A DNA stretch of 50,461 nucleotides from Clostridia bacterium (GTDB taxonomy: Bacteria; Bacillota; Clostridia; Christensenellales; Aristaeellaceae). Numbering within the stretch: the first letter of the stretch is position 1; each line of letters starts with the position of its first letter. Positions 23,547 through 38,796 of this stretch are shown in pieces. The position numbers and the translations under genes were made by a program. The stretch is from assembly GCA_017463245.1 (NCBI GenBank), contig JAFTPN010000061.1:1-50461 (forward strand), written 5' to 3'. The notes under the pieces are model-generated. The model did not search any database. It worked only from the letters and a program-made list of their open reading frames with translations, and was not told the DNA's origin.

Positions 23547-23549
23547 GCG

Positions 23550-23859: not shown

Positions 23860-23987
23860 TGCGCCGTGACCCCTGCTCGGAGATCACCATGCATGGCATC
23901 CCCGAATGGGAGTCCAGAGGGCCGAACGGCCCTTTGGCGGGTTGTCAGGGCAGCGCCCTGACCGGAGTCCAGAGGCAGCGCCTCTGG
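23860..23987 (-). repeat. Repeat family B, copy 1, directly after the degV stop
   Basis: Read from degV: CCAGAGGC / GCCTCTGG, then GTCAGGGC / GCCCTGAC, then CCAAAGGGCC / GGCCCTCTGG (one mismatch), then a conserved region with CCCATTCGGGG and AGCAGGGGTCACGG. It starts at the base after the degV stop codon. The same block follows ftsK (33038-33178), and a shorter form follows the M16 gene. Confidence 0.85.
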
Positions 23988-24815
23988 TTACCCTTCGTAG
24001 CCGATGAGGATGCCGCCGTCTTCGGCGTAGAAGCTGACGAGGCCGCGAGCCTGGTAGGTTTGGATGTCGGTATCGGGGGCGACTTCGCGGATGAGGCCGG
24101 TCATGATCTCGGCCAGGGCGGGGTTGTTGTGGGCAATGCGCACCTTGCCGCCCTTGAAGCCCCGCTCCTTCATCACGTTGATCAGCCCCTGCTGGGTGCG
24201 CTTTTCGCCGCGGCACTTGCTCACGGGCTGCAGGGTGCCCACATCGCTGGCAATGCCCACGATGCGGATGTTCAGCAGGCCAGCCAGCGCCGCCACTGCA
24301 GGGCTGACGCGGCCGTTGTTCACCAGGCTGCGCAGGCTTTCCAGCGCAAAGGTCAGGTGGGTGGTCTGCCGGTAGTCCTCGATCTGCTTTTCGATGGCCT
24401 CAAAGGTGCAGCCAGCCAGGTGCCATTCCGCCACCTTTTCGATGAGCAGCACCATTTCCGGGCCGGTGGACAGGGAGTCCACCACCAGCACCTTGCGTTC
24501 CGGGTGCTGGCGCAGGTAGTCCTCGCGGGCGATGCGGGCAGCATTGCAGGCGCCGCTCAGGTTGCTGGTGATGGTGATGCACACCACCTCGTCCGCCTCG
24601 CCAAAGGCGGCGCGCCAGTCATCAGGATTGGGGCAGGCGGTGGTGCTGCGACCCTTGTAGGTGGCCAGGTAGTCCAGCATTTCCCGGGGATCCAGCCGGG
24701 CGTCGTCCACAAAGGTACGCTCCCCCGCCATGATGGTCAGCGGTACAGATGCAAAATCCACCGCAGCAAAGCTGGTGAGATCGCAGGAGGAATCCGCAAC
24801 AATTTTGAATGCCAT
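23988..24815 (-). CDS. DegV family (fatty-acid-binding, FakB-like) protein
   Basis: 275 residues from ATG 24815 (AGAAGG upstream). DegV/FakB proteins bind a fatty acid and present it to the kinase FakA for phosphorylation and entry into phospholipids. Family features: FKIVADSSCDL at the N-terminus, STTACPNPDDW (the TSQP-like loop), CITITSNLSGACNAAR (ligand-binding loop), VLVVDSLSTGPEMVLLI, and LRSLVNNGRVSPAVAALAGL, the characteristic xxGRI-type helix. Length is typical. No fakA neighbour is present, which is common. The gene has its own promoter and a leader carrying a 10-bp palindrome. A family B repeat begins right after its stop codon. Confidence 0.92.
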   Translation of the reverse strand: MAFKIVADSSCDLTSFAAVDFASVPLTIMAGERTFVDDARLDPREMLDYLATYKGRSTTACPNPDDWRAAFGEADEVVCITITSNLSGACNAARIAREDYLRQHPERKVLVVDSLSTGPEMVLLIEKVAEWHLAGCTFEAIEKQIEDYRQTTHLTFALESLRSLVNNGRVSPAVAALAGLLNIRIVGIASDVGTLQPVSKCRGEKRTQQGLINVMKERGFKGGKVRIAHNNPALAEIMTGLIREVAPDTDIQTYQARGLVSFYAEDGGILIGYEG

Positions 24816-24843
24816 GCAAAAACGCCTTCTTATGCAAAAATGG

Positions 24844-24866
24844 TATCGGTTTTCGAAAAACCGATA
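24844..24866. promoter_or_regulatory. Palindrome in the degV leader
   Basis: Ten-bp arms TATCGGTTTT / AAAACCGATA around CGA, just downstream of the predicted degV transcription start. It may be an operator or a 5' RNA hairpin. It is not the known FapR box. Confidence 0.5.
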
Positions 24867-24876
24867 AGCTGGTTTG

Positions 24877-24905
24877 ACTATACCAGCTTTTGCGAACCGT
24901 GTCAA
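24877..24905 (-). promoter_or_regulatory. Promoter of degV
   Basis: Minus strand: TTGACA (24900-24905), 17-base spacer, TATAGT (24877-24882). Start predicted near 24870. Confidence 0.82.
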
Positions 24906-24945
24906 GGGATAGTTGGAACTTGTCACACTATATTCACAAACCGGA

Positions 24946-24974
24946 TTGACGCTGGACGCATTCTGCTTTATAAT
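24946..24974 (+). promoter_or_regulatory. Promoter of the DUF1836 gene
   Basis: TTGACG (24946-24951), 17-base spacer, TATAAT (24969-24974), 28 bases before the start codon. Back-to-back with the degV promoter. Confidence 0.85.
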
Positions 24975-25001
24975 AGTAAAGTAAAGAAGGAGGCGCGCGC
25001 C

Positions 25002-25520
25002 ATGGCTATCCGCATCGAGGACTTCCGGATGCCCCGCTACCGGGAGATCCCAAACATGGGCTTGTATCTGGATCAGACGATCAAGTACATCAACCAATAT
25101 CTCGAACCCCTGGGCTGCATGGAGATCACCTCCTCCATGGTGAGCAACTATGTGAAAAAAGGCTACATCAAAAGCCCGGTGCGCAAGCAGTACGACGCTG
25201 AGCAGATCGCCTATCTGTTCTTTATCGCCGTGGCGAAGAATGTACTGTCCATGGAGAGCATCGCCAAAATGTTTGGCCTGATGCACGGCACTTATGCCGA
25301 AGAGGTGGCCTACGACTATTTCTGCTCTGAATTGGAAAACGTGCTGAACTACATCTTCGGCGTACAGGACGACATCAGCTACCTTGGCACCACCAACTCC
25401 GAAGAGAAGGATATGCTGCGCAGCGTGATCGTGGCGGTGGCCAATGTGATTTATGTGAATGACAAGCTGAAGGCCAGAACCTCAACAGCAAAGCCCTGTG
25501 ATGAGCAAACAGAAGAATAA
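25002..25520 (+). CDS. DUF1836 protein, MerR-like DNA-binding fold
   Basis: 172 residues from ATG 25002, preceded by AAGGAGG. The frame is open far upstream but only this start has a ribosome site and promoter. DUF1836 proteins are predicted regulators with a winged helix related to MerR. The first half carries the family pattern: FRMPRYREIPNMGLYLDQTI, then MEITSSMVSNYVKKGYI and KQYDAEQIAYLFFIAVAKNV. The C-terminal half is helical and acidic near its end. No ligand-binding domain is visible. It is transcribed divergently from degV, so control of degV is possible (inference). A good terminator follows. Confidence 0.9.
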   Translation: MAIRIEDFRMPRYREIPNMGLYLDQTIKYINQYLEPLGCMEITSSMVSNYVKKGYIKSPVRKQYDAEQIAYLFFIAVAKNVLSMESIAKMFGLMHGTYAEEVAYDYFCSELENVLNYIFGVQDDISYLGTTNSEEKDMLRSVIVAVANVIYVNDKLKARTSTAKPCDEQTEE

Positions 25521-25526
25521 ACATTG

Positions 25527-25556
25527 TTCGCTGGTACAACACCAGCGAATTTTTTT
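25527..25556 (+). terminator. Terminator after the DUF1836 gene
   Basis: Stem TTCGCTGG / CCAGCGAA with a seven-base loop, followed by seven T residues. Confidence 0.9.
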
Positions 25557-25564
25557 GTGCTGCG

Positions 25565-25597
25565 TGTTAATTTTTCCCACCCTGTTTCGTCTGTATA
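25565..25597 (+). promoter_or_regulatory. Possible ECF-type promoter of the sigma factor gene
   Basis: TGTTAA (25565-25570), 17 bases, CGTCTGTATA (25588-25597). This resembles ECF promoters with TGwAAC and CGTC elements and would fit autoregulation. No sigma-A hexamers are seen. Confidence 0.4.
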
Positions 25598-25618
25598 GGT
25601 GAAGGAGGTGGAACGCAG

Positions 25619-26134
25619 ATGGAAGTTGTCATGGGCCCTGACAGCATCCGGGAGGCGAGGCTGACTCAGCTGATGCAGCAGCACGAAAAAGAGTTGCTGA
25701 AGCTGTGCTGCATCTATCTGCGGGATGTGAACATGGCAGAGGATGCCGTGCAGGAGACCTTTATCAAAGCATACAGGGCAATGGATGCGTTCCGCGGCGA
25801 ATGCAGCGAGCGCACCTGGCTGGCACGCATCGCCGTGAATACTTGCAAGGATATGCGCCGCAGCGCCTGGTATCGCTTTGTGGATCGACGCGTTACGCTG
25901 GATAACCTGCCTGAACCCATCGCGCCCGCCTCCGGCGAATCCATCCGCCTGACGGAGACAATTATGCGTATGCCCCGCAAGGACATGGAGGTTCTGCTCC
26001 TGTACTACTATCAGGGCATGACCATGGAGGAAGTCGGGCAAGCGCTGCATATTTCAGCAGCAGGTGTAGCGGGCAGACTCAAGCGCGCCCGCATACGACT
26101 CAAGGACATGATGAAGGGGGAGGGTGAGCCATGA
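25619..26134 (+). CDS. ECF-subfamily RNA polymerase sigma factor
   Basis: 171 residues from ATG 25619, ten bases after AAGGAGG. Region 2 spans about 15-80: LLKLCCIYLRDVNMAEDAVQ, then ETFIKAYRAMDAFRGECS and ERTWLARIAVNTCKDMRRS. Region 4 spans about 115-165: MPRKDMEVLLLYYYQGMTME, then EVGQALHISAAGVAGRLKRA. There is no region 1 or 3, as expected of extracytoplasmic-function sigmas. It directs RNA polymerase to stress or envelope genes when released from its anti-sigma partner. That partner is almost certainly the next gene, whose start overlaps this stop (ATGA) and which has one membrane segment and a large outside domain. The signal sensed is unknown. Confidence 0.95.
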   Translation: MEVVMGPDSIREARLTQLMQQHEKELLKLCCIYLRDVNMAEDAVQETFIKAYRAMDAFRGECSERTWLARIAVNTCKDMRRSAWYRFVDRRVTLDNLPEPIAPASGESIRLTETIMRMPRKDMEVLLLYYYQGMTMEEVGQALHISAAGVAGRLKRARIRLKDMMKGEGEP

Positions 26135-27792
26135 GGCGAAGCGTTGGCCACGAGGGACACATCCGTGTCGCCATCGATGAAGCACTTTCCGGCCTGGATG
26201 CCCGCCCGACCCTGCAATACCGCATAATGCAGGAAATCAGAGGTGAAAAGAAAGTGAAAAAGAAGTTATCCTTTGGCCTGGTGCTGGCACTGATCCTCAC
26301 CATGCTCACCGTAGCCGCTGTGGCTGCTGCGGCACTGAGCAGCTATTTTACCGGCTTTGCTCAGCTGGAACAGAAATATGGCGACTATGATACCTGGCCG
26401 GAAACAGCCAAGGTGGAGCTGGTCAACCTGATGGCACAGAGCGAACTGGACATCGACAATGCTCAGGTGGCACAAATGAACCAGCTCTCCGGCCAGGAGC
26501 AACTGCAATTGGCCGAAAGCATCATCAAGGACTATTACGGCAGCACCTACATGAGTACCACCCTCATCATGGAGCATGAGCTGGGTCAAAGTATGTACTG
26601 GAGCTATGAAATGAAAGCCCTGCACGACACACTGCTGAAGGAGTATGGCTACTTCAAGTATGGCGACTGGGATGAGTGCGTGCTGCCGGAGGAAGGCGAC
26701 ATTCCCCTGGACAAGGCGCTGGAGATTGCCCTGCAGGTGATGCAGGAGAAATTCGGCCTCTCGAAGGAATACTTTGCCCAGCGCCAGCTGGATGCCAGCT
26801 TTGTGAAGACCACAGAACACCCGGAACCCCATTGGCGGCTGGACTGGTGGGAAGGCGGCTATTGCGGCGTGGAAATCAGCCGCACCGGCGAACCCATGAG
26901 CTGGACAGCGCCTTCCTCCGGGATCACCTACACCGCTGAAACCGACCTGATGGCAGGCGCACGCCCCGCCACGCCGCTGCCAACCGATATGCAGGAGGAC
27001 GAAGCCATCCGCACCTCCCGCGCCGGGTTGACGGAAATCGGCTTTTATGACGAAGATGGTAATGTGGTCAGTCTGGAAGAGGAGCAGGTGGCAAGCTATA
27101 CCGCCAAAGCACAGTTTTTCTTCCATGATGATATCAACAACGGCGGCGCACCGGTGTGGATGGTCACCTTCTACGATGGCGACCAGATCGTCGCCCGGGT
27201 ACTGCACACCTACGATGGCCGCTACATGGACACCGCCTTCGGTCAGCAGGAATTTGCCCGCACCAGCATGAGAGACACCAGTTTCTATGATACCTATGAT
27301 ATTGCCGGGAAGTTCCCGGAAATGAGCAACGGCTTCTACTTCCTGTCCGCAGAGGAAAGGGGACGCCTGGCCGCTGCCATTGCCCCCTGGGCAGAGGAGT
27401 ACGCTGCCAGTCATCCCTATTGGGAAACCAGCCGGGAAGAATTCTACTACATCACCCAGAAATATCACTACGGCATCCCTGCCGAGGATGCCCTGCCCCA
27501 AAACACGGCACTTGAGCTTGCCCGGCAGGAGGCCATCCGCCTGGGCGCTATGCCGGAAACCATCAACGCCCGCACCGCCGAATTCTCCTATGAGATCAGC
27601 GATCCCAACAGACCCCTGTGGCGCATTCTGTTAGGCCGCGTAGACCGCCAGGATGCGGGGATCACCCTGGACGAGTGGAGCGAAAACAACAACTGCGAAC
27701 CCTTTGTGGTGCATCTGGACGCCTACACCGGCCAGGTGGTGAAGTCCTTCATGGTCACCGACGACGTTGAACACTGGGAATGGCGCTACTAA
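26131..27792 (+). CDS. Transmembrane anti-sigma factor with large extracytoplasmic domain
   Basis: 553 residues. A short cytoplasmic segment (1-45, including HIRVAIDEALSGLDARPTLQ) is followed by one membrane helix (about 47-70) and 480 outside residues. The coupling to the ECF gene (ATGA) and this topology define it as the anti-sigma factor; there is no zinc-binding HxxxCxxC motif. The outside part contains PepSY-like segments, for example DKALEIALQVMQEKFGLSKE, and HWRLDWWEGGYCGVEISRTG. Similar features return near 440-545 (LELARQEAIRLGAMPETI, PLWRILLGRVD). PepSY domains often inhibit or bind peptidases, so the outside part may sense envelope or protease activity (inference). It is far larger than usual anti-sigma proteins. 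A terminator follows. Confidence 0.82.
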   Translation: MRRSVGHEGHIRVAIDEALSGLDARPTLQYRIMQEIRGEKKVKKKLSFGLVLALILTMLTVAAVAAAALSSYFTGFAQLEQKYGDYDTWPETAKVELVNLMAQSELDIDNAQVAQMNQLSGQEQLQLAESIIKDYYGSTYMSTTLIMEHELGQSMYWSYEMKALHDTLLKEYGYFKYGDWDECVLPEEGDIPLDKALEIALQVMQEKFGLSKEYFAQRQLDASFVKTTEHPEPHWRLDWWEGGYCGVEISRTGEPMSWTAPSSGITYTAETDLMAGARPATPLPTDMQEDEAIRTSRAGLTEIGFYDEDGNVVSLEEEQVASYTAKAQFFFHDDINNGGAPVWMVTFYDGDQIVARVLHTYDGRYMDTAFGQQEFARTSMRDTSFYDTYDIAGKFPEMSNGFYFLSAEERGRLAAAIAPWAEEYAASHPYWETSREEFYYITQKYHYGIPAEDALPQNTALELARQEAIRLGAMPETINARTAEFSYEISDPNRPLWRILLGRVDRQDAGITLDEWSENNNCEPFVVHLDAYTGQVVKSFMVTDDVEHWEWRY

Positions 27793-27799
27793 ACAGCCG

Positions 27800-27826
27800 C
27801 CCGGCCTCCTGCGAGGCCGGGTTTTT
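27800..27826 (+). terminator. Terminator of the sigma/anti-sigma operon
   Basis: Stem CCCGGCCTC / GAGGCCGGG, loop CTGC, then TTTTT. Almost the same hairpin recurs at 29083-29108. Confidence 0.9.
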
Positions 27827-27862
27827 CAACCGCTGATTGATTTTCCAACAACGGATTGAGGA

Positions 27863-27890
27863 TTGCTTCTTCTCCATTCTGTGCTACCAT
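27863..27890 (+). promoter_or_regulatory. Candidate promoter of the XRE-TPR gene
   Basis: TTGCTT (27863-27868), 16-base spacer, TACCAT (27885-27890). Weak match but well placed. Confidence 0.4.
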
Positions 27891-27929
27891 AAAGCTACAC
27901 CGGTGATACCCACTTCAGGAGGAATGACC

Positions 27930-29078
27930 ATGCAACTCGATTTAGGAACCCGGATCCGTCACCTTCGCCGCCGGGACAGCCGCACCCAGGAGGCGCTGGC
28001 CACGGCGCTGGGCGTAACGGCGCAGGCGGTTTCCCGCTGGGAAGCCAACGGCAGCTATCCCGACATGAACCTGCTCCCTGCCATCGCCAATTACTTCAAC
28101 GTGACCATCGACGAGCTTTTCGGCTACACCGACAGCCGTGAAAAACGGCTGGATGCCCTCATCGCACGCATCCAGGCAGAGTGCCGTGCAGAAACCATGG
28201 ATGCGTGCCTCGCCCTCGCCCGTGAGGCCATGGTGGAGTTCCCCGGCAATGCGCGCATGATGCTCTGCCTGGCCTCGGTGCTGTATCAGGCCGGATATGC
28301 GCGCCACGGCGAGCATCATCTGATGGACACCGACGGCTACACCGTGTATGACACCCAGCGCCACAGCACCTATGCGGAGTGGCGCGAGGCCATTGTGCTT
28401 TACGAAAAGGCCTTGCCCCAGGCGGAGGATATCCCCCTGCGCCGTCAGGCCACACGGGAGCTATCCCAGCTGTATGTGAACATCGGCGCCTATGAAAAGG
28501 CGCTTGCCCTGGCCGATGCCGCGCCGGACATCTGGGGCTGCCGGGAGGTTTTGCGCATCAATGCCTGCGATGGCCGCCGCCAAGCCCGTGCCTGCGGCGA
28601 AGCGCTGCTGGCAACCGTCCGCGCCTGTGCGGAGCTGATGGTGCAATCGGTGCTGATCAACCAGCAGCTGCTGACGCCAGAAGAAAAGGTGCAGGCCTTG
28701 CAGAGCGCCCTGGGGCTTTTCCGCTGCATGTGCCCTGATGGAAACTATGGCGAGCATCACGCCTTCATCGGCAAGGTGCATATGCTGCTCTCGGCTTACC
28801 TCTGGTTATCGGGCAAAAAGGAGGAAGCCTTTGCCGCCTTGGGCGAGGTTTCGCGCCACTTCAAAGCCTATGAAGCCCTCAGCCGCAAGGGAGGGTGCAC
28901 CTACACCGCCGCCCTGGTGCGCCTGGTGAAAGCCAACGTGCCGCCCATGCAGCCTTCCGCCCTTGCCGCCCTTCCGGAGGACTGGCCCTGGTGGAGCATC
29001 CCGGAGGCCGCGACCATCAAAGCAGAAATGCGTGCCGACCCCCGCTGGGATGCGTGGGTCGCCCAGCTACAGGCATAA
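27930..29078 (+). CDS. XRE-family regulator with helical-repeat C-terminal domain
   Basis: 382 residues from ATG 27930, seven bases after AGGAGG; ATG 27924 is too close to it. The N-terminal 65 residues are an XRE helix-turn-helix: TRIRHLRRRDSRTQEALATA, then LGVTAQAVSRWEANGSYPDM and NLLPAIANYFNVTIDELFGY. The remaining 315 residues are helix-rich, with TPR-like pairs such as YEKALPQAEDIPLRRQATRE and YVNIGAYEKALALADAAPD. This two-part build is common in Clostridia regulators; the ligand or partner of the helical part is generally unknown. It is a single-gene unit between two matching terminator hairpins. No target genes can be assigned. Confidence 0.88.
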   Translation: MQLDLGTRIRHLRRRDSRTQEALATALGVTAQAVSRWEANGSYPDMNLLPAIANYFNVTIDELFGYTDSREKRLDALIARIQAECRAETMDACLALAREAMVEFPGNARMMLCLASVLYQAGYARHGEHHLMDTDGYTVYDTQRHSTYAEWREAIVLYEKALPQAEDIPLRRQATRELSQLYVNIGAYEKALALADAAPDIWGCREVLRINACDGRRQARACGEALLATVRACAELMVQSVLINQQLLTPEEKVQALQSALGLFRCMCPDGNYGEHHAFIGKVHMLLSAYLWLSGKKEEAFAALGEVSRHFKAYEALSRKGGCTYTAALVRLVKANVPPMQPSALAALPEDWPWWSIPEAATIKAEMRADPRWDAWVAQLQA

Positions 29079-29082
29079 GCAA

Positions 29083-29108
29083 CGCCCGGCCTCCTGCGAG
29101 GTCGGGCG
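29083..29108. terminator. Terminator between the XRE-TPR and methylase genes
   Basis: Stem CGCCCGGCCTC / GAGGTCGGGCG (one G-T pair), loop CTGC. It lies between convergent genes. Confidence 0.75.
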
Positions 29109-29114
29109 CTTTGT

Positions 29115-30335
29115 TTACTTCCAGGCAAACACACTCTTTCTCCCTGCGGCGTCCACCGTTTGCACCGCCAGGTTGGGCAGGTTTTCCGGCAGGACGCACA
29201 TCAGGGGCAGGTCGGGGTGCTTGGGGCTGCGGTGAAAATGCTGCAAGGTTTTGAGCTGCCCATCCTCCACATACCCCGCCGACCAGCATTCCAGCCGGTC
29301 GAAGGCGCGCTCCGTTTTAGGGAAGGAGGGATGCTCCGTGCGGAAGTCCGTCAGCAGCAGCACGCCATCCTCCGGGGTGTAGCTGGCCTCCAGCCGGGCG
29401 GTGGCGGAGCAGGGCGCTTCAATGCCCATGTCCCGCAGGCTCAGGCGGCTGCGGGCGATCAGCACCGCCTCGGGGCTCATGTCCATGCCCATCACCCGGC
29501 AGCCCAGCGCCTGGGCGGCCACCAGCGCCGTGCCGCTGCCGCAGCACAGGTCGCACACCATGTCCCCCGGCTGCACCACCGGGCGCAGCAAGCGATCCAG
29601 AAGCTTCAGGGGTTTTTGCGTGGCATAGCCGCTGCGCTCCGGGTCGCGCTGCTGCAAGTGGCTGATGTCCGTCCACACGTCGCCGGGGTAGACGGGGGTA
29701 TCGTCATAATAGCGGTATTCCTTGCCGCCGGAGCGGATGCTGCGGTAGGCGCGGCCAGTTTCGTCCACCTGACGGCGCATATGGTTGCGGCGCACAGCGC
29801 TGCGCGCCAGCGGCACCTTTGTCAGGTCGAAGCGGTACTTGCGGGACTTGACGTAGAGCAGGATCACATCATGCTTGCGGCTGAAGTGCCGCCGGGCACG
29901 GCCGCCGCTCTCGTAAGCCCAGATGACCTCGTTCAGGAAGCGATCCTCGCCGAAGATCTCGTCGCACAGGATGCGGGCATATGCGGAGGCACGCCAGTCC
30001 AGGTGCAGGCACAGTACGCCCGTGGGGCTGAGCAGCCGGTGGGCGTTGGTCAGCAGGCCGCGGAGGAAGGCCATGTAGTCCTCCCGGCTGGCAAAGCGGT
30101 CGTCATAGGCGGGGTATTCCGGCGCAGGCGAGCCGGTACGCCAGCCTTTTTGCCCAAAGCGGCGGCGGCGGGTGAAGGTGCCCCCGGTCATGAAAGGCGG
30201 ATCGACGTACACGCATTGCACCTTGCCCTCGTGGGCGGCGATCTCCGCAGGCAGCTCCCCTGCCCCGTTGCCGCAAAGCAGCAGGCTGGTGCCATCGCCA
30301 ATGATCTCCCGGGCAATGCTGATGGGCTCAAACAT
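29115..30335 (-). CDS. Beta-class site-specific DNA methyltransferase (orphan)
   Basis: 406 residues from ATG 30335, eight bases after GGAGG; in-frame GTG 30344 overlaps the upstream gene and has no spaced site. The order of motifs defines the beta class. Catalytic motif IV DPPF (45-48) comes first and the AdoMet-binding motif I CDLCCGSGTALVAA (261-274) near the C-terminus, preceded by GYATQKPLKLLDRLL. DPPY/F is typical of N6-adenine methylases, though N4-cytosine enzymes in this class cannot be excluded. The variable region between (about 140-235) is the likely target-recognition part. No restriction endonuclease lies nearby, so it looks solitary. It is co-transcribed with the Cys-cluster gene upstream. 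Confidence 0.9.
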   Translation of the reverse strand: MFEPISIAREIIGDGTSLLLCGNGAGELPAEIAAHEGKVQCVYVDPPFMTGGTFTRRRRFGQKGWRTGSPAPEYPAYDDRFASREDYMAFLRGLLTNAHRLLSPTGVLCLHLDWRASAYARILCDEIFGEDRFLNEVIWAYESGGRARRHFSRKHDVILLYVKSRKYRFDLTKVPLARSAVRRNHMRRQVDETGRAYRSIRSGGKEYRYYDDTPVYPGDVWTDISHLQQRDPERSGYATQKPLKLLDRLLRPVVQPGDMVCDLCCGSGTALVAAQALGCRVMGMDMSPEAVLIARSRLSLRDMGIEAPCSATARLEASYTPEDGVLLLTDFRTEHPSFPKTERAFDRLECWSAGYVEDGQLKTLQHFHRSPKHPDLPLMCVLPENLPNLAVQTVDAAGRKSVFAWK

Positions 30336-30336
30336 G

Positions 30337-30843: not shown

Positions 30844-30885
30844 GGCGATGCACCTCGCGTTTTCTCTACCACCATCTTACAACAA

Positions 30886-30925
30886 AAAGCGCCATTCGCA
30901 AAGAACTTTTTGCAAATGGCGCTTC
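30886..30925 (-). terminator. Terminator downstream of the UPF0340 operon
   Basis: Stem AAGCGCCATT / AATGGCGCTT with an inner GCAAA / TTTGC helix; on the minus strand it ends in TTTTTG. It lies beyond the family A repeat. Confidence 0.78.
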
Positions 30926-30940
30926 ATTCTGAAAAAACCC

Positions 30941-31126
30941 AGGAGGTGTCGGAGGCGCCGCAGCGCCTCTGACTGTAATCGTATCCGCCGGGTTTCCCGG
31001 CGGGGCGGGTCGTTTTCCGCTCTGAGGAAAACATTCCTTACGCGGAGGAACGGCCGTGGACGGCGCTTACGCCGGACACAGTGACGGAGCGCAATCCTCA
31101 CCAAAGTGGCTCTGCCACTTTGGTGA
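30941..31126 (-). repeat. Repeat family A, copy 2, directly after the UPF0340 stop
   Basis: Read on the minus strand it begins at the base after the stop codon. Hairpins: TCACCAAAGTGGC / GCCACTTTGGTGA; CGGCG / CGCCG; GTTTTCC / GGAAAAC; CCGCCGGG / CCCGGCGG; GAGGCGC / GCGCCTC. Loops and linkers match copy 1 (15620-15808) while several stem pairs differ in a compensated way. Confidence 0.85.
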
Positions 31127-31684: not shown

Positions 31685-31696
31685 GGTCGTTCCTCC

Positions 31697-32818: not shown

Positions 32819-33037
32819 GGAAACACCTCCATACGGCACAGTATGCGGGAAGGGAATTAGAACTTAGAAATTAGAAATTAGAAATTATTAATTGAGAGTG
32901 TGGCTCCCAATCCCTCCGTCAGCCCAAAGGGCTGACACCTCCCTTTACACAAGGGAGGCTCAACCCCTCAGTCCCTTCGGGACAGCTCCCCTACAAAGGG
33001 GAGCCTTAGTTACTTCCCCTGCGTCGCGGCGCAACCG
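32819..33037. other. Non-coding gap with AT-rich tandem repeat and two family C-type repeats
   Basis: No credible gene. 32860-32885 holds three to four near copies of TTAGAAA. A family C repeat lies at 32909-32959, and a diverged form at 32961-33006 (GTCCC / GGGAC, then GCTCCCCT / AGGGGAGC). The family B repeat begins at about 33038. Confidence 0.7.
32909..32959 (-). repeat. Repeat family C, copy 2
   Basis: GTCAGCCC / GGGCTGAC with loop AAA, then CCTCCCTT / AAGGGAGG with spacer TACAC. Same order and orientation relative to family B as the copy near degV. Confidence 0.8.
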
Positions 33038-33178
33038 TATTTGCGCCGTGACCCCTGCTCGGAGACCACCCAGCACCGCCCTCCCCGAATGGGAGTCCAG
33101 AGGGCCGAACGGCCCTTTGGCGGGTTGTCAGGGCAGCGCCCTGACCGGGAGTGCAGAGGGCAGAGCCCTCTGCCCCCG
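33038..33178 (-). repeat. Repeat family B, copy 2, directly after the ftsK stop
   Basis: Read from ftsK: GCAGAGGGC / GCCCTCTGC, then GTCAGGGC / GCCCTGAC, then CCAAAGGGCC / GGCCCTCTGG (one mismatch), then the conserved CCCATTCGGGG region. Starts at the base after the ftsK stop codon. Confidence 0.85.
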
Positions 33179-36061
33179 TCACTCATCAAGCTCGTTGTTT
33201 TCCTTCATGCGCTCGAATTCTTCGCGGGTGATGAGGCAGATGCGGGGCTTGGCGCCGTCTTTGGCGGAGACGATGCCGCGCTTTTCCATTTCGTCAACCA
33301 GGCGGCCTGCGCGGGCGTAGCCGACCTTCAGGCGGCGCTGGAGGAGGGAGGTGGAGACCTGTCCGTCCTGGACGGCCATTTCGATGCACTGCGCCAGGAG
33401 CGAGGAATCGCTGTTGGGATCGTCGGCAGATTCCGTGCTGTCCACCATGGGGAAGCCGCCGTTCTCGTGCTCCAGCTGATCCAGCTGCTCGATGATGTTG
33501 GGATCGTATTCCGCTTCGCAGTTCTCGCGAATGAAATCGGTGACGCGGTTGACCTCGTTATCCGACATGAAGCAGCCCTGCACACGCACGGGAGTGAAGG
33601 CGCCGGTGGGCAGGTAGAGCATATCGCCCCAGCCCAGCAGCTGCTCGGCACCCACGCGGTCGAGGATGGTGCGGCTGTCGATAAAGCTGGACACCTTGAA
33701 GGCGATGCGGCTGGGAATGTTGGCCTTGATGAGGCCGGTGATCACGTCCACCGAGGGACGCTGGGTGGCCACCACCAGGTGGATGCCCGCAGCACGCGCC
33801 AGCTGCGCCAGGCGGCAGATGTGATCTTCCACGTCGCGCTTGCAGGTCATCATCAGATCAGCCAGCTCGTCGATGATGATCACGATGCGGGGCATGAACT
33901 CCTCGCCGTCCTCCAGCTTGGCGTTGTAGCCGTCAATGGCGCGCACGCCCTTCACCTGGAACTTCTTGTAGCGATCCATCATCTCCGCCACCGCCCAGGC
34001 CAGCGCGCCGGAGGCCTTGTGGGGATCGGACACCACGGGGATCAGCAGGTGGGGAATGCCGTTGTAGCATTGCAGCTCCACCACCTTGGGATCCACCAGG
34101 ATCATGCGCACCTCACGGGGCGAGCAGCGGTAGAGCAGGGAGTTGATCATGGTGTTGATGCACACCGACTTACCGGAACCCGTGGCGCCGGCAATGAGCA
34201 GGTGGGGCATACGCGCCAGGTCGCACACGATGGGCGTGCCGGCGATGTCCTTGCCCAGCGCCACCACCAGGGGCGACTTGGCCTCCTGCATGGGCTGGCT
34301 TTCCAGCACCTCGCGGAGGGTCACGGTGGAGACCTTGTTGTTGGGCACTTCCACGCCGATGAGGGAGGTGCCGGGGATGGGCGCCTCGATACGCACGGAC
34401 TTCACCGCCATGTCCATGGCGATGTTCTTGCCCAGGTCGGTGACCTTGGTGACCTTGATGCCCGCCGCCAGCTCCAATTCGAACCGGGAAATAGCGGGGC
34501 CGTGGGTCACGTGGCGCACCTTGGCAGGCACCTTGAAGGACTGCAGGGTCTCTTCCAGGCGCTGGGAGCGGATGCTGTCTTCCTCCGGGCTGACGCCAGC
34601 CATGGGTTCGGCGGGCTTGAGCAGATTCATGCCGGGGAACACATAGGGCGGGGGCAGCTCCATTTCCACCTGCTCGCCCTGGGGAGCATTCTTGCGGGGC
34701 GGGAGCTTCAGCTCAGGCTGCCAGGCATCCTTGGGCGGCTCCTGCTGCAGCTTGGGCGCGACCACCGCTGCGGCATTGTCCACGGGGGCATCCTCCCAGG
34801 GCGGGGTCTCCGACCAGGAGGGCTTGGGCTGCTGCTTTTTCTTCACGGGACGGGCAGGCTGGTAGTCCTCCACCGGCTCCTCGCTGCGCCAGGAGGCGGT
34901 GCGCTGGGGCTGGGTGTTCTCCCGCCAGGTCTGGCCGGTACTCCGGGCAGGCTTGACCACAGGTTCCTCGTAGAATTCCTCCACGGGTTCCTCCGCCACA
35001 GGCTCTGCAACCTGCGCCTTGCGCCCGCCAAAGATGCCGGTGCGCTTGGGTTCCTCCGGCGCATAGGCGGGCTCCTCCGCCTGCTTTTTGCGGCCGAAGA
35101 TCTTCGACTTGCGCTCGGCTTCCTCCGGCTTGACCTGATAGGCAGGCTGCTCGTAGGCGGCGTATTCTTCCTCGGTGGGCTGGAAACCGACCTGCACCGG
35201 GGCTTTCTTCACTTGCTGGCGGGGCGGCTGCTGCACACTCTGGCGCATCTGCCGCTGCTGCTGGATGGGCATCTGCTGCACGGGCTGCTGGTAGGCCCCC
35301 TGGGGGACGTAGGCATCCCAGCCGTCGCCCTGCTGCACCGGGGGCAAGGCACGCTGCGCCGCTATTTCCTGCTGGCGCTGCTGCCACATCATCTCCTGCT
35401 GGCGCTGGTGCTGATCCTCCTGCGCCTGGTATGCCCTGCGCTGCTCCTGCTTTTCCTTCACCTGGCCGAAGATCTTCCTGAAGTCCAGCCGGATCATGAA
35501 CAGGAAGGCCACCACCGCCAGCAGCACCCCGATGATGCCGCCGCCAATGGCGCCCAGCACCTTCCACAGCGGCCAGGCCAGCAGCATGCCGAACAGGCCG
35601 CCGCTCAAGCCCTTGGAGGCGCCCAGCTCGTAGGCACGGGCAAGGTAGAGATCATAAGCGCCGGGGGTGGAAGACCGGGACTGGTTGCTGGTGTACAGGT
35701 AGTCCATCAGGGAGCCCGTGCTGGTGCGGGTGAACAGGGTGATGGTGGCCAGCAAAAGGAAATACACCACGGCAAAGAGCGCATAGGCACGGATGGGTGC
35801 CTTGCGCTGGGTGGACATGATCACCAGAATGCCGCCCCAGATAGGCAGCACCGGCAGCACAATGGCCAGGCCGCCCGCCAGACCATGGCACACCTGACGC
35901 ATCCCGGCAAACACATCGCCGGAAAGGTTCACCGCCACGGCCAGGAAGATCATCACGCCCAGCGCAATCAGCACCAGGCCACCCACCAGATGCAGCGCCA
36001 TGCTGTCTGCCGAGTAGGCCGGTGCCTTGCGGGGTTTGTTGTTTTTGCTTTTCTGCGCCAT
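33179..36061 (-). CDS. ftsK: FtsK/SpoIIIE-family DNA translocase
   Basis: 960 residues from ATG 36061 (GGAGG seven bases ahead). Membrane-anchored ATPase that pumps DNA through the septum in division or sporulation. Four N-terminal membrane segments (about 20-190) are followed by a Gln/Pro/Glu-rich linker (about 205-470) and the motor. Walker A is GATGSGKS (Lys631) and Walker B IVIIIDELADLMM (Asp731/Glu732). The C-terminal gamma winged helix, which reads KOPS/SRS-type sequences, is clear: VSTSLLQRRLKVGYARAGRL and VDEMEKRGIVS. The linker is unusually rich in Gln and in GRKKQ/GRKAQ-like pieces. FtsK and SpoIIIE cannot be separated from sequence alone. It follows a secreted-protein gene by 23 bases, and a family B repeat begins at its stop. 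Confidence 0.95.
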   Translation of the reverse strand: MAQKSKNNKPRKAPAYSADSMALHLVGGLVLIALGVMIFLAVAVNLSGDVFAGMRQVCHGLAGGLAIVLPVLPIWGGILVIMSTQRKAPIRAYALFAVVYFLLLATITLFTRTSTGSLMDYLYTSNQSRSSTPGAYDLYLARAYELGASKGLSGGLFGMLLAWPLWKVLGAIGGGIIGVLLAVVAFLFMIRLDFRKIFGQVKEKQEQRRAYQAQEDQHQRQQEMMWQQRQQEIAAQRALPPVQQGDGWDAYVPQGAYQQPVQQMPIQQQRQMRQSVQQPPRQQVKKAPVQVGFQPTEEEYAAYEQPAYQVKPEEAERKSKIFGRKKQAEEPAYAPEEPKRTGIFGGRKAQVAEPVAEEPVEEFYEEPVVKPARSTGQTWRENTQPQRTASWRSEEPVEDYQPARPVKKKQQPKPSWSETPPWEDAPVDNAAAVVAPKLQQEPPKDAWQPELKLPPRKNAPQGEQVEMELPPPYVFPGMNLLKPAEPMAGVSPEEDSIRSQRLEETLQSFKVPAKVRHVTHGPAISRFELELAAGIKVTKVTDLGKNIAMDMAVKSVRIEAPIPGTSLIGVEVPNNKVSTVTLREVLESQPMQEAKSPLVVALGKDIAGTPIVCDLARMPHLLIAGATGSGKSVCINTMINSLLYRCSPREVRMILVDPKVVELQCYNGIPHLLIPVVSDPHKASGALAWAVAEMMDRYKKFQVKGVRAIDGYNAKLEDGEEFMPRIVIIIDELADLMMTCKRDVEDHICRLAQLARAAGIHLVVATQRPSVDVITGLIKANIPSRIAFKVSSFIDSRTILDRVGAEQLLGWGDMLYLPTGAFTPVRVQGCFMSDNEVNRVTDFIRENCEAEYDPNIIEQLDQLEHENGGFPMVDSTESADDPNSDSSLLAQCIEMAVQDGQVSTSLLQRRLKVGYARAGRLVDEMEKRGIVSAKDGAKPRICLITREEFERMKENNELDE

Positions 36062-36084
36062 GATGATCCTCCATACATTTCAAG

Positions 36085-37230
36085 TTAACGGATGCTGATA
36101 AACAGGCTTACCAGATCCCCATCATCGTTGGCATGGAGCCGCAGCTGCACGCCGTCGTAATTGTAATAATCGCTGTAGCCGGGCAGGATGCGGTTGCTTT
36201 CCGCCTTCACATCGTCCACCTCCACGGTGGCGTCCGGCTCGCCCAGTACGCTGCGCCATTCGGCCTGGGTGGTCACATCGGTCATCAGGCCATACAGGTT
36301 CACCTGATCCACGCGGATGCCCTGGATCACGCTCTGCTCCCAGCTGTCCGTCAGGCTGTCGGTGAGCAGATACACGCCGCGGAAGGCACCGTCCTCCAGC
36401 TGCATCATGCGGCCATTCTCATACAGATCCGGATCCATCAGCAGGCGATAGGCATCCACCGCCTCCTGCACCGACCCGCCCAGCTTCACCGGGATGCCCG
36501 GCAGCTGGCCGCTTTCCACCGCTGTGCGGATGGCCTCGGCGCTGGATTCATCCAGGGTGACCATCCTCTCCGCGCCAATGCGGTGCAGGATCGTCCCCTC
36601 GCCCAGCTTCAGGTATTCCAGCATTTCAGCCCAGCGGAAGCTTACCGTGCCTGCCCTGTCGCTGAGGGTGGAGAGCTGCTCCATGGGGTAATACAGCGTC
36701 AGCCCCATCTCGCTGATCCCGAAGGTCTCCGGCAGGGGCGTCAATTGACTGTTGCGCAAATGGGCGCTGAGCAGCGGCGCAATGCCCCACTCCAACTGCT
36801 CCTCCAGCGCCAGGCGAGCAGCCTCAGCATCCACAAAGATATCCTCAAAGGTAATGGCTTCCCCGGTGGTCAGGTCAATGTTGGCGGTATACCACACCTG
36901 GGTCGCCCGATCGTTTTCCACAGGGCCGGTGGCCAGGACGGTCACGCTGAGTACATCGCCCATCAGCTGATGGGTGAAATCCACCTGCAGGGGCGCAGCG
37001 CTTTGCATGGTCAGCGCCAGGCGGGTCAGCAGCGTTTCCGCGCCGGTGGACGTGCGCAGGGCGGCGTTCACCTTCTCCTGCACGGTCGCGTCCTCCATAC
37101 CCTCCACCTGGGGATAATACACATACCCCTCGCCCAGCATCAGACCCTGACGGGTCACGGTGGTCTCGGCGCAAGCGGAGGTCAGCGCCAGCATACACAC
37201 CAGGAAGCACACAAAAAATCTCTTCATCAT
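36085..37230 (-). CDS. Secreted protein, possible DUF3298/RsiV-like domain
   Basis: 381 residues from ATG 37230 (GGAGG six bases ahead; ATG 37227 also possible). An export signal at 1-22 ends ACA-ET, a good signal peptidase I site. The N-terminal half resembles the deacetylase-associated DUF4163/DUF3298 pair seen in RsiV-type proteins. It reads YVYYPQVEGMEDATVQEKVN, then DFTHQLMGDVLSVTVLATGP and WYTANIDLTTGEAITFEDIF. The C-terminal part (about 250-380) looks like a separate beta domain with a Gly-rich NYDGVQLRLHANDDG end. The function is unknown; DUF3298 proteins may bind glycan or lysozyme-like ligands. It is first gene of a transcript that continues into ftsK. Confident as a secreted protein, tentative on domain. 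Confidence 0.72.
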   Translation of the reverse strand: MMKRFFVCFLVCMLALTSACAETTVTRQGLMLGEGYVYYPQVEGMEDATVQEKVNAALRTSTGAETLLTRLALTMQSAAPLQVDFTHQLMGDVLSVTVLATGPVENDRATQVWYTANIDLTTGEAITFEDIFVDAEAARLALEEQLEWGIAPLLSAHLRNSQLTPLPETFGISEMGLTLYYPMEQLSTLSDRAGTVSFRWAEMLEYLKLGEGTILHRIGAERMVTLDESSAEAIRTAVESGQLPGIPVKLGGSVQEAVDAYRLLMDPDLYENGRMMQLEDGAFRGVYLLTDSLTDSWEQSVIQGIRVDQVNLYGLMTDVTTQAEWRSVLGEPDATVEVDDVKAESNRILPGYSDYYNYDGVQLRLHANDDGDLVSLFISIR

Positions 37231-37250
37231 AGTCGTCCTCCGGAAAGATT

Positions 37251-37279
37251 ATTGTACAACAAATAACGAATCTTCGCAA
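37251..37279 (-). promoter_or_regulatory. Promoter of the secreted protein-ftsK operon
   Basis: Minus strand: TTGCGA (37274-37279), 17-base spacer, TACAAT (37251-37256), about 20 bases before the start codon. Confidence 0.65.
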
Positions 37280-37317
37280 GTTTTCCTTCCCCAAAGCGGC
37301 TTTACCAGCTGGATTCC

Positions 37318-37346
37318 TTGCAATCCTTCGTGTTTTCTATTATAAT
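37318..37346 (+). promoter_or_regulatory. Promoter of the M16 peptidase gene
   Basis: TTGCAA (37318-37323), 17-base spacer, TATAAT (37341-37346), 34 bases before the start codon. Confidence 0.78.
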
Positions 37347-37380
37347 GAATAAAACCGTTACAACCGAGGAGGCTACCCCT

Positions 37381-38667
37381 ATGTCCGCCATGCAAGAATA
37401 TCATCTGCCCAACGGTATGACCCTGCTGTGCAGCCGCCAGCCCCACCTCCATGCCATGGAGTTCGGCCTGTATTTCAAGGGCGGCACCCTGTATGAAAAC
37501 AAGCAGAATCAGGGCATTTGCCACCTGCTGGAGCATTTGTGCTTCCGCAGCCTTGGCGGCTTGGAGGCCGAGGGCATCAACCGCCTCATGGCGCGCTTTG
37601 GCGCGGAGCTGGATGGCGCCACCTATCCCGAGGGCGTGGTGTTCCGCCTCAAGACCCATCCCCGCTTCTTCGACGAGGTACTCGACCTTTACCTGCGCTT
37701 CTTTGCCGATGTGGCCTGGACGCAGCAGCAGATCGACGCCGAAAAGCAGGTGGTGCTCCGCCAGCTGGAGCAGGAGGACTGCGACTTTGACGAGGAGGTC
37801 AGCCGCCGCTACCGCAAGACGGCCGCCGGTGCCTTTTCCCTGATGGGCACGGTGCAGTCCATCCAGGACATGAGCGCCGCCACCATCCGCCGCTGGCAGC
37901 GCCTGCTGTTCCAGCCGCAAAACGCCTGCCTGTGCCTCACCGGCAATTTCTCCGAGGGCATGGAGCGCGCCCTGGTGGAAGCCTTCTCCGAACTGAAAAA
38001 CAATTTTGACGAGCCGCCCTTTGCCCAGACCGTCCCCCTGGGCTTCTGCATGCGGGATAGCCGCAGCGACTTCATCATGGACGAGGAAGGCGGCCAGGCC
38101 AAGGTGCATCTGGCCTTCGACCTGGACGAGGATCGGGTCTTCCCCCTCACGGGCGAGGTGCTGAACGCCTTCACCGCCGGCAACAGCGATTCCCTGCTCT
38201 TCCAGAAGCTCCGCGAGGAAATGGCGCTGGTGGCGGAGATCGACTCCACCATGGAGGAAATGGGCATGTTCCGCCGCCTGGTGATCCGCTATGACGTGCG
38301 CCAGGAATGCCTCGTCGCCAGCCTGCGCAAGGTGTTTGAGCTGCTGCACCGCCTGCAGATGTATGTGCGCCCCATCCGCCTCACCCAGACCCGCATGCAG
38401 TTCACCGACAACCTGGTTTTCTACCAGGACGACGTGTCCGGCATGAACGACCTGCTGGGCTGGGCATGGATGGCCGACGACCTCTCCCGCGCCGACCTGG
38501 ACGCCCAGGCACAGATGTACGACGACCTGACCTGCGAGGATCTGCTGGACGCCGCCCAGTCCGTTTTCCGACCGGAAAACCTGACCATCTCCATCCAGCG
38601 CGACCCCGCCCAGACCCCCAAAAACCTGAAACCCCTGCTGATGGACCTGCGTAACACGCTGGCTTAA
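37381..38667 (+). CDS. M16-family (insulinase/processing-protease type) zinc metallopeptidase
   Basis: 428 residues from ATG 37381, eight bases after GAGGAGG. The inverted zinc motif HLLEH (48-52) is intact, with Glu51 as the catalytic base. The likely third ligand is Glu130 in EKQVVLRQLEQE, about the usual distance away. YHLPNGMTLLCSRQPHLHAM is the standard N-terminal strand. The length fits one complete M16A/M16C half-enzyme (two lobes), which would act as a dimer or with a non-catalytic partner. No second M16 gene is adjacent, although paired genes are usual. No signal peptide, so cytoplasmic, like YmfH/YmxG-type proteins. A family B repeat begins at the stop codon. Confidence 0.93.
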   Translation: MSAMQEYHLPNGMTLLCSRQPHLHAMEFGLYFKGGTLYENKQNQGICHLLEHLCFRSLGGLEAEGINRLMARFGAELDGATYPEGVVFRLKTHPRFFDEVLDLYLRFFADVAWTQQQIDAEKQVVLRQLEQEDCDFDEEVSRRYRKTAAGAFSLMGTVQSIQDMSAATIRRWQRLLFQPQNACLCLTGNFSEGMERALVEAFSELKNNFDEPPFAQTVPLGFCMRDSRSDFIMDEEGGQAKVHLAFDLDEDRVFPLTGEVLNAFTAGNSDSLLFQKLREEMALVAEIDSTMEEMGMFRRLVIRYDVRQECLVASLRKVFELLHRLQMYVRPIRLTQTRMQFTDNLVFYQDDVSGMNDLLGWAWMADDLSRADLDAQAQMYDDLTCEDLLDAAQSVFRPENLTISIQRDPAQTPKNLKPLLMDLRNTLA

Positions 38668-38772
38668 GGGCGCTGCCCTTAGGGATCCCGGTCAGGGCGC
38701 TGCCCTGACAACCCGCCAGAGGGCGCTGCCCTCTGGACTCCCGCGAAGGGCCCTTCGGCCCTTTCGAAACCC
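38665..38772 (+). repeat. Repeat family B, copy 3, incorporating the M16 stop codon
   Basis: The first hairpin TAAGGGC / GCCCTTA (loop GCT) includes the TAA stop itself. It is followed by GTCAGGGC / GCCCTGAC, CCAGAGGGC / GCCCTCTGG, and GAAGGGCC / GGCCCTTTC around CTTC. Same order and orientation relative to the upstream gene as the degV and ftsK copies. Confidence 0.85.
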
Positions 38773-38796
38773 GTTTTTTTGGCCGAAAGGTGTTAT

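What the first reader, a model, noticed from the sequence alone, without database searches (positions are those of the whole stretch)
23860..38772. Family B: hairpin trains that begin at the stop codon of degV, ftsK and the M16 gene
Three copies start at the base after the stop (degV, ftsK) or include the stop in the first stem (TAAGGGC / GCCCTTA for the M16 gene). The order is constant: a variable first hairpin, the invariant GTCAGGGC-GCT-GCCCTGAC, then a third GGGC-rich hairpin. The first stem differs completely between copies (GCAGAGGGC, CCAGAGGC, TAAGGGC), yet each is perfectly paired. Orientation relative to the gene is identical in all three. This is too regular for chance and is not an ordinary terminator, as no T-tract follows the individual hairpins.
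Basis: seen in the sequence. Interest (0 to 1): 0.78.

Follow-up and report, generated by a model that had tools for sequence, protein, structure and literature searches.

The report
Triplex-like hairpin trains at stop codons
A group of gut bacteria carries dozens of short repeats that mostly sit right behind the stop codons of unrelated genes; each unit is a hairpin followed by a spacer that tends to match the hairpin's own arm in the same direction, the layout expected of a three-stranded nucleic acid fold, but no function has been tested.

Summary
The genome has 30 copies of the core hairpin. 26 of 30 lie behind a same-strand gene, the first hairpin -18 to +9 nt from the stop; of 27 copies with both neighbours known, 23 do so against 0.7 expected at random. 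Three details fail: the ftsK hairpin starts 5 nt after the stop; the GTCAGGGC hairpin is one interchangeable module, not a fixed middle; RAYT does not track the repeat.

New finding: each unit is hairpin plus linker, and the linker is the parallel complement of its own 5' arm (AGAGGG->ACTCCC, AGGGAC->ACCCTG, AGAGGAGG->ACTCCACC): mutual information 15 sd above permutation in that register, 2.5 sd in two others. That is intrastrand-triplex geometry. On the template strand 28 of 105 units pass a published class I triplex rule, against 5.5 with permuted linkers.

Best reading: a REP-like mosaic of triplex-capable hairpins anchored at stop codons, forming a 3'-UTR hairpin train. Closest known: PIT/TM intrastrand triplex repeats. 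Triplex folding, termination and mobility are untested; the tight stop anchoring is not seen in Methylobacterium.

The parts
23988..24815 (-). degV (DegV family, PF02645); stop TAA at 23990-23988. Start is my caller's; the listed open frame runs to 25286
23969..23987 (-). train 1, hairpin 1 CCAGAGGC-GCT-GCCTCTGG, directly behind the stop
23963..23968 (-). train 1, linker ACTCCG, parallel complement of AGAGGC (first A kept)
23944..23962 (-). train 1, core module GTCAGGGC-GCT-GCCCTGAC
23938..23943 (-). train 1, linker AACCCG
23914..23937 (-). train 1, hairpin 3 CCAAAGGGCC-GTTC-GGCCCTCTGG (one mismatch)
33179..36061 (-). ftsK (FtsK_SpoIIIE, alpha and gamma domains); stop TGA 33181-33179
33153..33173 (-). 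train 2, hairpin 1 GCAGAGGGC-TCT-GCCCTCTGC, 5 nt behind the stop
33146..33152 (-). train 2, linker ACTCCCG, parallel complement of AGAGGGC (first A kept); class I triplex hit at 33146-33173 on the + (template) strand
33127..33145 (-). train 2, core module
33097..33120 (-). train 2, hairpin 3 CCAAAGGGCC-GTTC-GGCCCTCTGG (one mismatch)
37345..38667 (+). M16 peptidase-family gene (PF00675/PF05193); stop TAA 38665-38667 lies inside hairpin 1
38665..38681 (+). train 3, hairpin 1 TAAGGGC-GCT-GCCCTTA; the stop codon is the start of the 5' arm
38684..38690 (+). train 3, linker GATCCCG
38691..38709 (+). train 3, core module
38716..38736 (+). train 3, hairpin 3 CCAGAGGGC-GCT-GCCCTCTGG; with linker 38737-38743 a class I triplex hit on the - (template) strand at 38716-38743
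38745..38765 (+). train 3, end hairpin GAAGGGCC-CTTC-GGCCCTTTC (one bulge)
38774..38780 (+). T7 tract behind the end module of train 3, 16 nt before the next start codon (38797)

Best explanation
A REP-like mosaic repeat family built of interchangeable modules. Each module is a hairpin with a purine-rich 5' arm followed by a 5-9 nt linker that tends to be the parallel complement of that arm. In this genus usually 3-5 hairpins in one orientation form a train set directly behind, or overlapping, a stop codon. Shown: modularity, stop-codon anchoring in two genomes, orientation, arm-arm and arm-linker matching, filled and empty sites between species. Inferred: (i) on the template strand modules can fold into a purine-motif intrastrand triplex (linker complement = third strand), and keeping that fold is why linkers track arms; (ii) on the mRNA the train is a stack of stable hairpins at the 3' end that helps end transcription and shields the message from 3' decay; the first hairpin, so close to the stop that a terminating ribosome should cover it, may couple this to translation; (iii) modules spread by copying of hairpin-plus-linker units. 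The copying machinery is unknown and is probably not RAYT.
For: Stop anchoring: 26 of 30 own copies and 20 of 26 in G012 within 9 nt of a same-strand stop; with both neighbours known 23 of 27 (random mean 0.74, maximum 5 in 20,000 draws) and 20 of 26 (random mean 0.87, maximum 6). Stops inside modules: three own genes end ...VRALP* in the core (L018, L037, L044), and the RidA-type gene ends the same way in G012. Core-free trains: 6 of 9 within 9 nt of a stop. Linker rule: MI 0.420 against 0.084 (sd 0.022, 0 of 1000 permutations) over 63 distinct arms in the parallel register, z 2.5 in two other registers. On 72 of 85 arms, 346 of 420 purines meet G->C or A->A/T, against 0.619 by permutation. 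At linker position 2, arm A (41 arms) gives A 32, T 5, G 4, never C; arm G (26 arms) gives C 22, T 1, G 3. Class I triplex rule with hairpins kept and only linkers permuted: 28 of 105 units against 5.5 (maximum 12 of 200 permutations) in the own genome, 17 of 93 against 3.3 (maximum 8) in G012; on distinct hairpins 12 of 31 against 2.5 and 9 of 36 against 1.9. Hairpins away from the core show almost no linker effect on the 3' side. Turnover: empty and filled sites behind the same stops; single hairpin+linker modules inserted or swapped between orthologous trains. Behind degV, both arms and the linker differ together between G000 and G008.
Against: No triplex, RNA-end or decay data exist here. 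Most units do not reach the class I rule (28 of 105 own, 17 of 93 in G012 do), and 9 of 30 own trains have no hit, among them L018; in the window the degV train has none. The distinct arms share ancestry, so permutation z overstates independence. The purine code (A->A or T) and the pyrimidine code (A->T) both exceed permutation (z 10.7 and 10.2), so the strand that would fold is not settled. A free-register test did not separate parallel from antiparallel matching (z 5.7 and 5.6). For ordinary hairpins the mirrored 5' flank gave MI z 19.4 and triad z 2.8, so MI can respond to composition; the register contrast and the control carry the claim. In one orthologous pair (L037/L264) arm and linker changed at non-matching positions. 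In E. coli the comparable TM motif showed no stable triplex in vivo, and PMC4666352 cites no promoter or terminator activity for it. 4 of 30 own copies do not follow a same-strand gene. Tight stop anchoring is not general: in the Methylobacterium group 1 of 25 copies lies within 9 nt of a same-strand stop. The M16 train sits inside a likely operon, which argues against full termination there.
Confidence: 0.5

Rival explanations
1. Plain hairpin-cluster terminator or mRNA 3'-end stabiliser acting only as RNA; the linker match has some other cause, such as descent of a few module types.
For: Trains sit where 3'-UTR hairpins act; clusters of hairpins without U-tracts have been proposed as terminators (PMC8355165, abstract and passages). 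T>=4 occurs within 60 nt behind 15 of 30 and 15 of 26 trains. Stable RNA folds, z -3.0 to -4.2. Only a minority of units meets the class I rule.
Against: Does not predict parallel-register matching of linker to own arm or the excess over permuted linkers, nor its near absence in other hairpins of the same loci.
Confidence: 0.25
2. REP/BIME repeats mobilised by a RAYT (Y1 transposase).
For: Palindromic, intergenic, multi-copy, clustered; the genome has one RAYT-like Y1 protein. REPs are known to provide stop codons to neighbouring ORFs (PMC3733652, passage).
Against: RAYT-like protein in 4 of 18 genus genomes, which hold 30, 0, 2 and 0 core copies; absent from six genomes with 10-26 copies. Pfam Y1_Tnp absent from G003, G013, G015 and G004, which hold 10-16 copies, though that search also missed the RAYT-like protein of G006, and these genomes are 77-88% complete. 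GTAG/CGTC tags at hairpin feet are rare: 0 GTAG and 5 CGTC hits in 106 own hairpins. Modules do not alternate in orientation in this genus.
Confidence: 0.08
3. Single-strand transposition substrate of another enzyme, in which the linker is a cleavage site read by the hairpin arm, as in guide/cleavage-site pairing of IS200/IS605 (recalled, not checked).
For: Modules behave as hairpin+linker units; the linker lies 3' of the hairpin.
Against: The match lies inside the paired stem and runs 5-9 nt rather than about 4 (recalled); no shared Y1 transposase was found; other enzymes were not searched.
Confidence: 0.08
4. Neutral palindromes kept perfect by template switching (quasi-palindrome correction; recalled), placed behind stops only because insertions elsewhere are lost.
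For: Explains nearly perfect arms in most copies without selection.
Against: Ordinary template switching cannot make a parallel (mirror) match in the linker; placement within 9 nt is far tighter than the space available (median intergenic 410 nt).
Confidence: 0.09

Closest known systems
Potential intrastrand triplex (PIT) elements of E. coli / TM_ECO (Holder et al. 2015, PMC4666352; earlier Hoyne and Maher work known to me through that paper)
   Same: Short G/C-rich hairpin plus a third strand in mirror register on one strand; multi-copy, intergenic, patchy between relatives; part of the units meets the published stem and loop limits.
   Different: TM_ECO is class II (third strand 3' of the hairpin), one consensus, either strand, no trend to a specific distance from ORFs. 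Here class I on the template strand, usually 3-5 hairpins in a train, many stem types each with its own matching linker, mostly within 9 nt of stop codons.
REP/BIME/REPIN elements with RAYT
   Same: Palindromic, extragenic, modular, 3' of genes, can supply stop codons (PMC3733652, passage); E. coli REPs within 15 nt of a stop are reported to affect translation (as cited in PMC12306157, passages).
   Different: No GTAG/CGTC tag rule, no RAYT correlation, no alternation of orientation, extra linker rule.
Clusters of hairpins as intrinsic terminators (PMC8355165, abstract and passages)
   Same: Several hairpins less than 15 nt apart near the stop codon without U-tracts between them.
   Different: That class is defined by structure alone; here it is a repeated sequence family with matching linkers, and no termination data.
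Modular repeats such as BOX elements of Streptococcus (recalled; only a search listing seen, PMC3049150)
   Same: Mosaic of modules in intergenic DNA.
   Different: Module sequences and the linker rule; no homology tested.

Membership tests
Intrastrand triplex repeats (PIT / ITxF class I) | Three stems on one strand in the order third-purine-pyrimidine, stems of 6 or more with at most one mismatch from 7, loops 1-6 | tested here: met
   Met by part of the units: 29 hits on the template strand of 30 trains, all with one mismatch, 0.0 in 20 shuffles; 21 of 30 own and 15 of 26 G012 trains have at least one hit; 28 of 105 and 17 of 93 units against 5.5 and 3.3 with permuted linkers. My re-implementation of the rule read in PMC4666352, with the hairpin loop restricted to 3-6.
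Intrastrand triplex repeats (PIT / ITxF class I) | Folds as a triplex in vitro | not testable with these tools
   Needs CD/NMR or footprinting.
TM_ECO | Class II pattern CCCTCNCCC-N3-6-GGGNGAGGG-N3-GGGNGAGGG | tested here: not met
   Class II hits in the 30 trains: sense 0, antisense 0; the exact consensus was not searched.
REP (GTAG/CGTC superfamilies) | GTAG or CGTC at one end of the palindrome | tested here: not met
   0 GTAG and 5 CGTC hits at the feet (both strands) of 106 own-genome hairpins; 1 and 5 in 93 hairpins of G012.
REP/RAYT | RAYT gene co-occurs with repeat | tested here: not met
   genomes are incomplete (68-96%).
BIME | REPs in alternating orientation (PMC2817692, start of abstract in a listing) | tested here: not met
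   By reading the list, 104 of 106 (own) and 91 of 93 (G012) hairpins carry the G-run in the 5' arm. In Methylobacterium some trains do hold modules in both orientations.
Intrinsic (Rho-independent) terminator | T-tract right behind the hairpin | tested here: not met
   Inner hairpins 1 of 143; but T>=4 occurs within 60 nt behind the last hairpin in 15 of 30 and 15 of 26 trains.
Rfam families | Covariance-model match above gathering score | tested here: not met
   16 matches at E<=5 in window 23000-39000, none over its gathering score and none overlapping the three trains.

The most novel reading that the evidence does not exclude
Linker-arm matching is an evolutionary trace of selection for intrastrand triplexes (none such found in my paper searches): a stop-codon-anchored class of template-strand triplex trains that acts as a roadblock or insulator at gene ends in a Clostridia genus, with relatives built of the same modules, less tightly placed, in Methylobacterium and Magnetococcales.
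Probability: 0.25. Interest if true: 0.85.

Novelty: new variant of a known kind. Interest (0 to 1): 0.62.

Why it matters
Whether natural intrastrand triplex motifs form and matter in bacteria has stayed open: the motif studied in PMC4666352 folds in vitro but shows no stable fold in vivo. A family with many stem types, each tending to carry its own matching third strand, offers what a single consensus lacks: compensatory variants made by evolution. Changing arm, linker, or both gives a direct test. It is also an unusual case of repeats that take over the 3' ends, and sometimes the stop codons, of unrelated genes.

Tried and rejected
RAYT/Y1 as the driver: rejected on distribution. A first permutation test with free register could not tell parallel from antiparallel matching (z 5.7 and 5.6); fixed-register tests and a linker-permutation control that keeps the hairpins were used instead. 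The shuffle control destroys hairpins and so says nothing about linkers alone. Mutual information on generic hairpins showed that composition can inflate MI on the 5' side. My first gene caller chose mirror-strand ORFs and was discarded. The retrained one gave L277 a gap of -164; one search shows that gene ending VRALP* in the core, i.e. -18. The one search counts were left as computed, and L277 is among the 20 of 26 either way. G-quadruplex: equal G-run lengths within a unit would fit, but A/T positions that track the arm (AGGAG->ACCTC, AGAGAC->ACTCTG or ATTCTG) are not needed for a quadruplex. Rfam: nothing over threshold. Viral contigs: 0 exact matches to core+AACCC. Plasmids: no match for train 3 at E<=0.01. 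In 199 genomes drawn from the phylum, the CAGAGG..ACTCC module was found in the own genome and one other. Rows dropped: 5 genomes whose best degV match was paralog-like, G008 for ftsK (no match), and the weak second matches. Literature absence rests only.
Full report
WHAT IS THERE. The window is contig C35 of a 2.70 Mb, 92-contig genome. Most records with the same 26-base pattern are titled Clostridia from animal guts, one Christensenellaceae. The core hairpin GTCAGGGC-NNN-GCCCTGAC occurs 3 times in the window (shuffles 0.08) and 30 times in the genome, against 0 for the reversed pattern. A shorter unit, GGGCAGMGCCC, occurs 71 times on one strand and 61 on the other, again 0 for the reversed pattern. 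Of 17 same-genus relatives 8 have the core (G012 26, G008 21, G003 16, G013 14, G015 12, G004 10, G006 2, G014 1); of 42 genomes outside the genus, 0.

POSITION. With a codon-usage gene caller retrained on the three known genes, 26 of 30 own copies follow a same-strand gene. The gap from stop to first hairpin is -18 (3 copies), -5 (2), 0 (11), or 2 to 9 (10); 4 copies are exceptions (L020, L030, L033, L041) on the start side of an opposite-strand gene. In G012, 22 of 26 follow a same-strand gene and 20 of 26 are at or within 9 nt. These 20 include L277, computed at -164 by a gene-caller error and really -18; the other two are at 31 and 53 nt. One search shows that the 31-nt case has an imperfect hairpin starting at the stop. 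Random placement in the same intergenic spaces with random orientation gives a mean of 0.74 against 23 of 27 (own), and 0.87 against 20 of 26 (G012). In the window degV is at 0 nt, ftsK at 5 nt, and M16 has its stop inside the first stem. Where the own-genome gap is -18, the core itself is read as V-R-A-L-P-stop, ending a nitroreductase-family, an ABC-transporter-family and an L-PSP/RidA-family protein. REPs that supply stop codons are already described (PMC3733652, passage), so this detail is not new as such.

GRAMMAR. A train has 3, 4 or 5 hairpins in 15, 14 and 1 of 30 own copies, and 2, 3, 4 or 5 in 1, 10, 14 and 1 of 26 in G012. They are separated by linkers such as ACTCCG, ACTCCCG, AATCCCG, GATCCCG, AACCCG and AAACCC. 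The core is one of the modules: its place in the train varies. Another module, CAGAGG..ACTCC, has 33 places in the genome; of the 19 for which loci were held, 9 have no exact core nearby, and 6 of these 9 lie within 9 nt of a stop. By reading the list, 104 of 106 own hairpins carry the G-run in the 5' arm.

LINKER RULE. The linker tends to be the parallel complement of the hairpin's own 5' arm, starting two bases into the stem: AGAGG->ACTCC, AGAGGG->ACTCCC, AGAGGAGG->ACTCCACC, AGGAG->ACCTC, AGGGAC->ACCCTG, AGAGAC->ACTCTG or ATTCTG, AAAGGG->AAACCC. G-runs of 2, 3, 4 and 5 are usually answered by C-runs of the same length (in the own genome 10, 47, 3 and 1 matching cases, against 9 others). Over 63 distinct arms (core excluded), mutual information in this register is 0.420 against 0.084 (sd 0.022) when linkers are permuted; two other registers give z 2.5. 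With more loci, and after dropping 13 of 85 arms (bulged GAAGGG end modules and arms with fewer than four purines), 346 of 420 arm purines meet the code G->C, A->A/T (permuted 0.619, z 10.7); before dropping, 350 of 447 (z 10.3). The stricter code A->T gives 261 of 420 (permuted 0.466, z 10.2). At linker position 2 an arm A is never answered by C (0 of 41), while an arm G is answered by C in 22 of 26. Hairpins away from the core in the same loci show almost none of this on the 3' side (124 arms, triad-score z 1.4, MI z 2.1); their mirrored 5' side gave z 2.8 and MI z 19.4, which I read as composition. In other lineages the 3' side gives triad z 3.7 and MI z 8.2, the 5' side 0.4 and 6.2 (42 arms). 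A first, free-register test had not separated parallel from antiparallel matching. Arms share ancestry, so these z values are descriptive.

TRIPLEX READING. A 3' arm followed by its mirror image is the layout of a hairpin whose neighbouring strand can lie in the major groove. On the template strand a module reads third strand, purine arm, pyrimidine arm, i.e. class I of Holder et al. 2015 (PMC4666352; abstract and sections 10, 14-18 and part 1 of 20 read). My version of their rule finds 29 class I hits on the template strand of the 30 trains, all with one mismatch, 2 on the sense strand, none in shuffles, and no class II hits. In the whole 50-kb window there are 3 class I hits, two of them in trains (ftsK and M16; none in the degV train), and 1 class II hit. 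Shuffling breaks hairpins, so one search kept them and permuted linkers only: 28 of 105 own units pass with their own linker against 5.5 on average (maximum 12 of 200), 17 of 93 against 3.3 (maximum 8) in G012; 21 of 30 and 15 of 26 trains have at least one hit. So the rule is clearly non-random, but most units fall short of the published cut-off. The paper reports that TM_ECO folds very stably in vitro, shows no stable triplex in vivo, no trend in distance to ORFs and no strand bias. It says that the pyrimidine fold of the other strand is more stable in acid; I therefore favour the template-strand DNA, but both codes exceed permutation and the strand is not settled.

EVOLUTION. Read by eye, a train starts at or just behind the stop in 3 of 13 degV, 4 of 17 ftsK and 4 of 18 M16 loci of the genus, with a degraded one at M16 of G013. 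Several other species have ordinary T-tract terminators there or, at M16 of G004, only a short spacer. The filled sites hold different modules: M16 has TAAGGGC/GCCCTTA in G000, TAAGGGGAC/GTCCCCTTA in G008 and another variant in G015, all around the stop; at ftsK, G004 and G015 hold trains of other modules. Behind degV, G000 has CCAGAGGC..ACTCCG and G008 CCAGAGGGGAC..ACTCCCCTG: both arms and linker differ together, by change or by module swap. Only 9 of 30 own copies have an ortholog of their upstream gene behind a core-bearing train in G012, although the nine pairs are 94-100% identical in protein; some of the rest may be missed by the exact pattern or by assembly gaps. Among the nine, single hairpin-plus-linker modules are inserted or swapped (L018/L260, L044/L277, L017/L258); in L037/L264 arm and linker changed at non-matching positions.

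WHO MOVES IT. The own genome has one RAYT-like Y1 protein. It is in 4 of 18 genus genomes, holding 30, 0, 2 and 0 core copies, and in none of six genomes with 10-26 copies. Pfam Y1_Tnp is in 6 of 18 and missing from four repeat-rich ones, but it also missed the RAYT-like protein of G006. No mobiliser is known; other transposases were not searched.

OTHER LINEAGES. Exact core+AACCC counts in nine such genomes are 9, 5, 2, 1 (Methylobacterium group), 1, 3 (Magnetococcales), 3 (Anaerotruncus), 4 (Lapin) and 1 (HAN034). Methylobacterium copies mostly use the same pair GTCAGGGC..AACCC(G/A)-CCAAAGGGC..AAACCC. Of 25 distinct copies 17 follow a same-strand gene, 16 at 5-111 nt and one at 555 nt; 1 of 25 is within 9 nt, and 11 of 25 lie between convergent genes. 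Shared modules are thus found without the tight stop anchoring. Shared descent, transfer or convergence under the same rule cannot be told apart here.

FUNCTION. RNA folds are stable. T>=4 occurs within 60 nt behind 15 of 30 and 15 of 26 trains, and AACCC..GGGTTT in 11 and 9. Clusters of hairpins near stops have been proposed as terminators (PMC8355165, abstract and passages), and E. coli REPs within 15 nt of a stop are reported to affect translation (as cited in PMC12306157, passages). I therefore commit to a 3'-end element acting on transcription ending and message stability, with triplex capacity as the reason for the linker rule; the first part is likely, the second plausible, and neither is shown.

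Noticed in passing
L011 (from 939), L202 (from 2521), L270 (from 1547): A repeat of about 105 nt (starting AACCTCAATCGTCGCA) lies between the two arms of a train hairpin in all 3 distinct occurrences among my loci: a nested insertion at a hairpin apex.
   Followed up: partly
window about 23840-23885 and 33020-33070; other own-genome trains: 22 of 30 own trains are followed within about 240 nt by GGGGTCACG or GGGGTCGCG, the start of another palindromic repeat.
   Followed up: partly
window 32960-33010: A second repeat type, CCCCTCAGTCCCTTCGGGACAGCTCCCCTACAAAGGGGAGCC; a similar sequence lies behind the M16 stop in G016 and G017.
   Followed up: no
L016 1453-1950 (-): A RAYT-like Y1 protein of 165 aa lies between two ORFs that look like uracil-DNA glycosylases (by eye, not searched); no GGGCAGMGCCC hairpin is listed near it.
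   Followed up: partly
L313 (G134, another genome of the phylum, 7.3 Mb): A single exact copy of the module CAGAGGGCTCTGCCCTCTGGACTCC outside the genus, beside another hairpin.
   Followed up: no
L178 (G011), behind the degV ortholog: A short hairpin GGGCCGCTGGCCC starts at the base after the stop TGA; not counted as a train.
   Followed up: no
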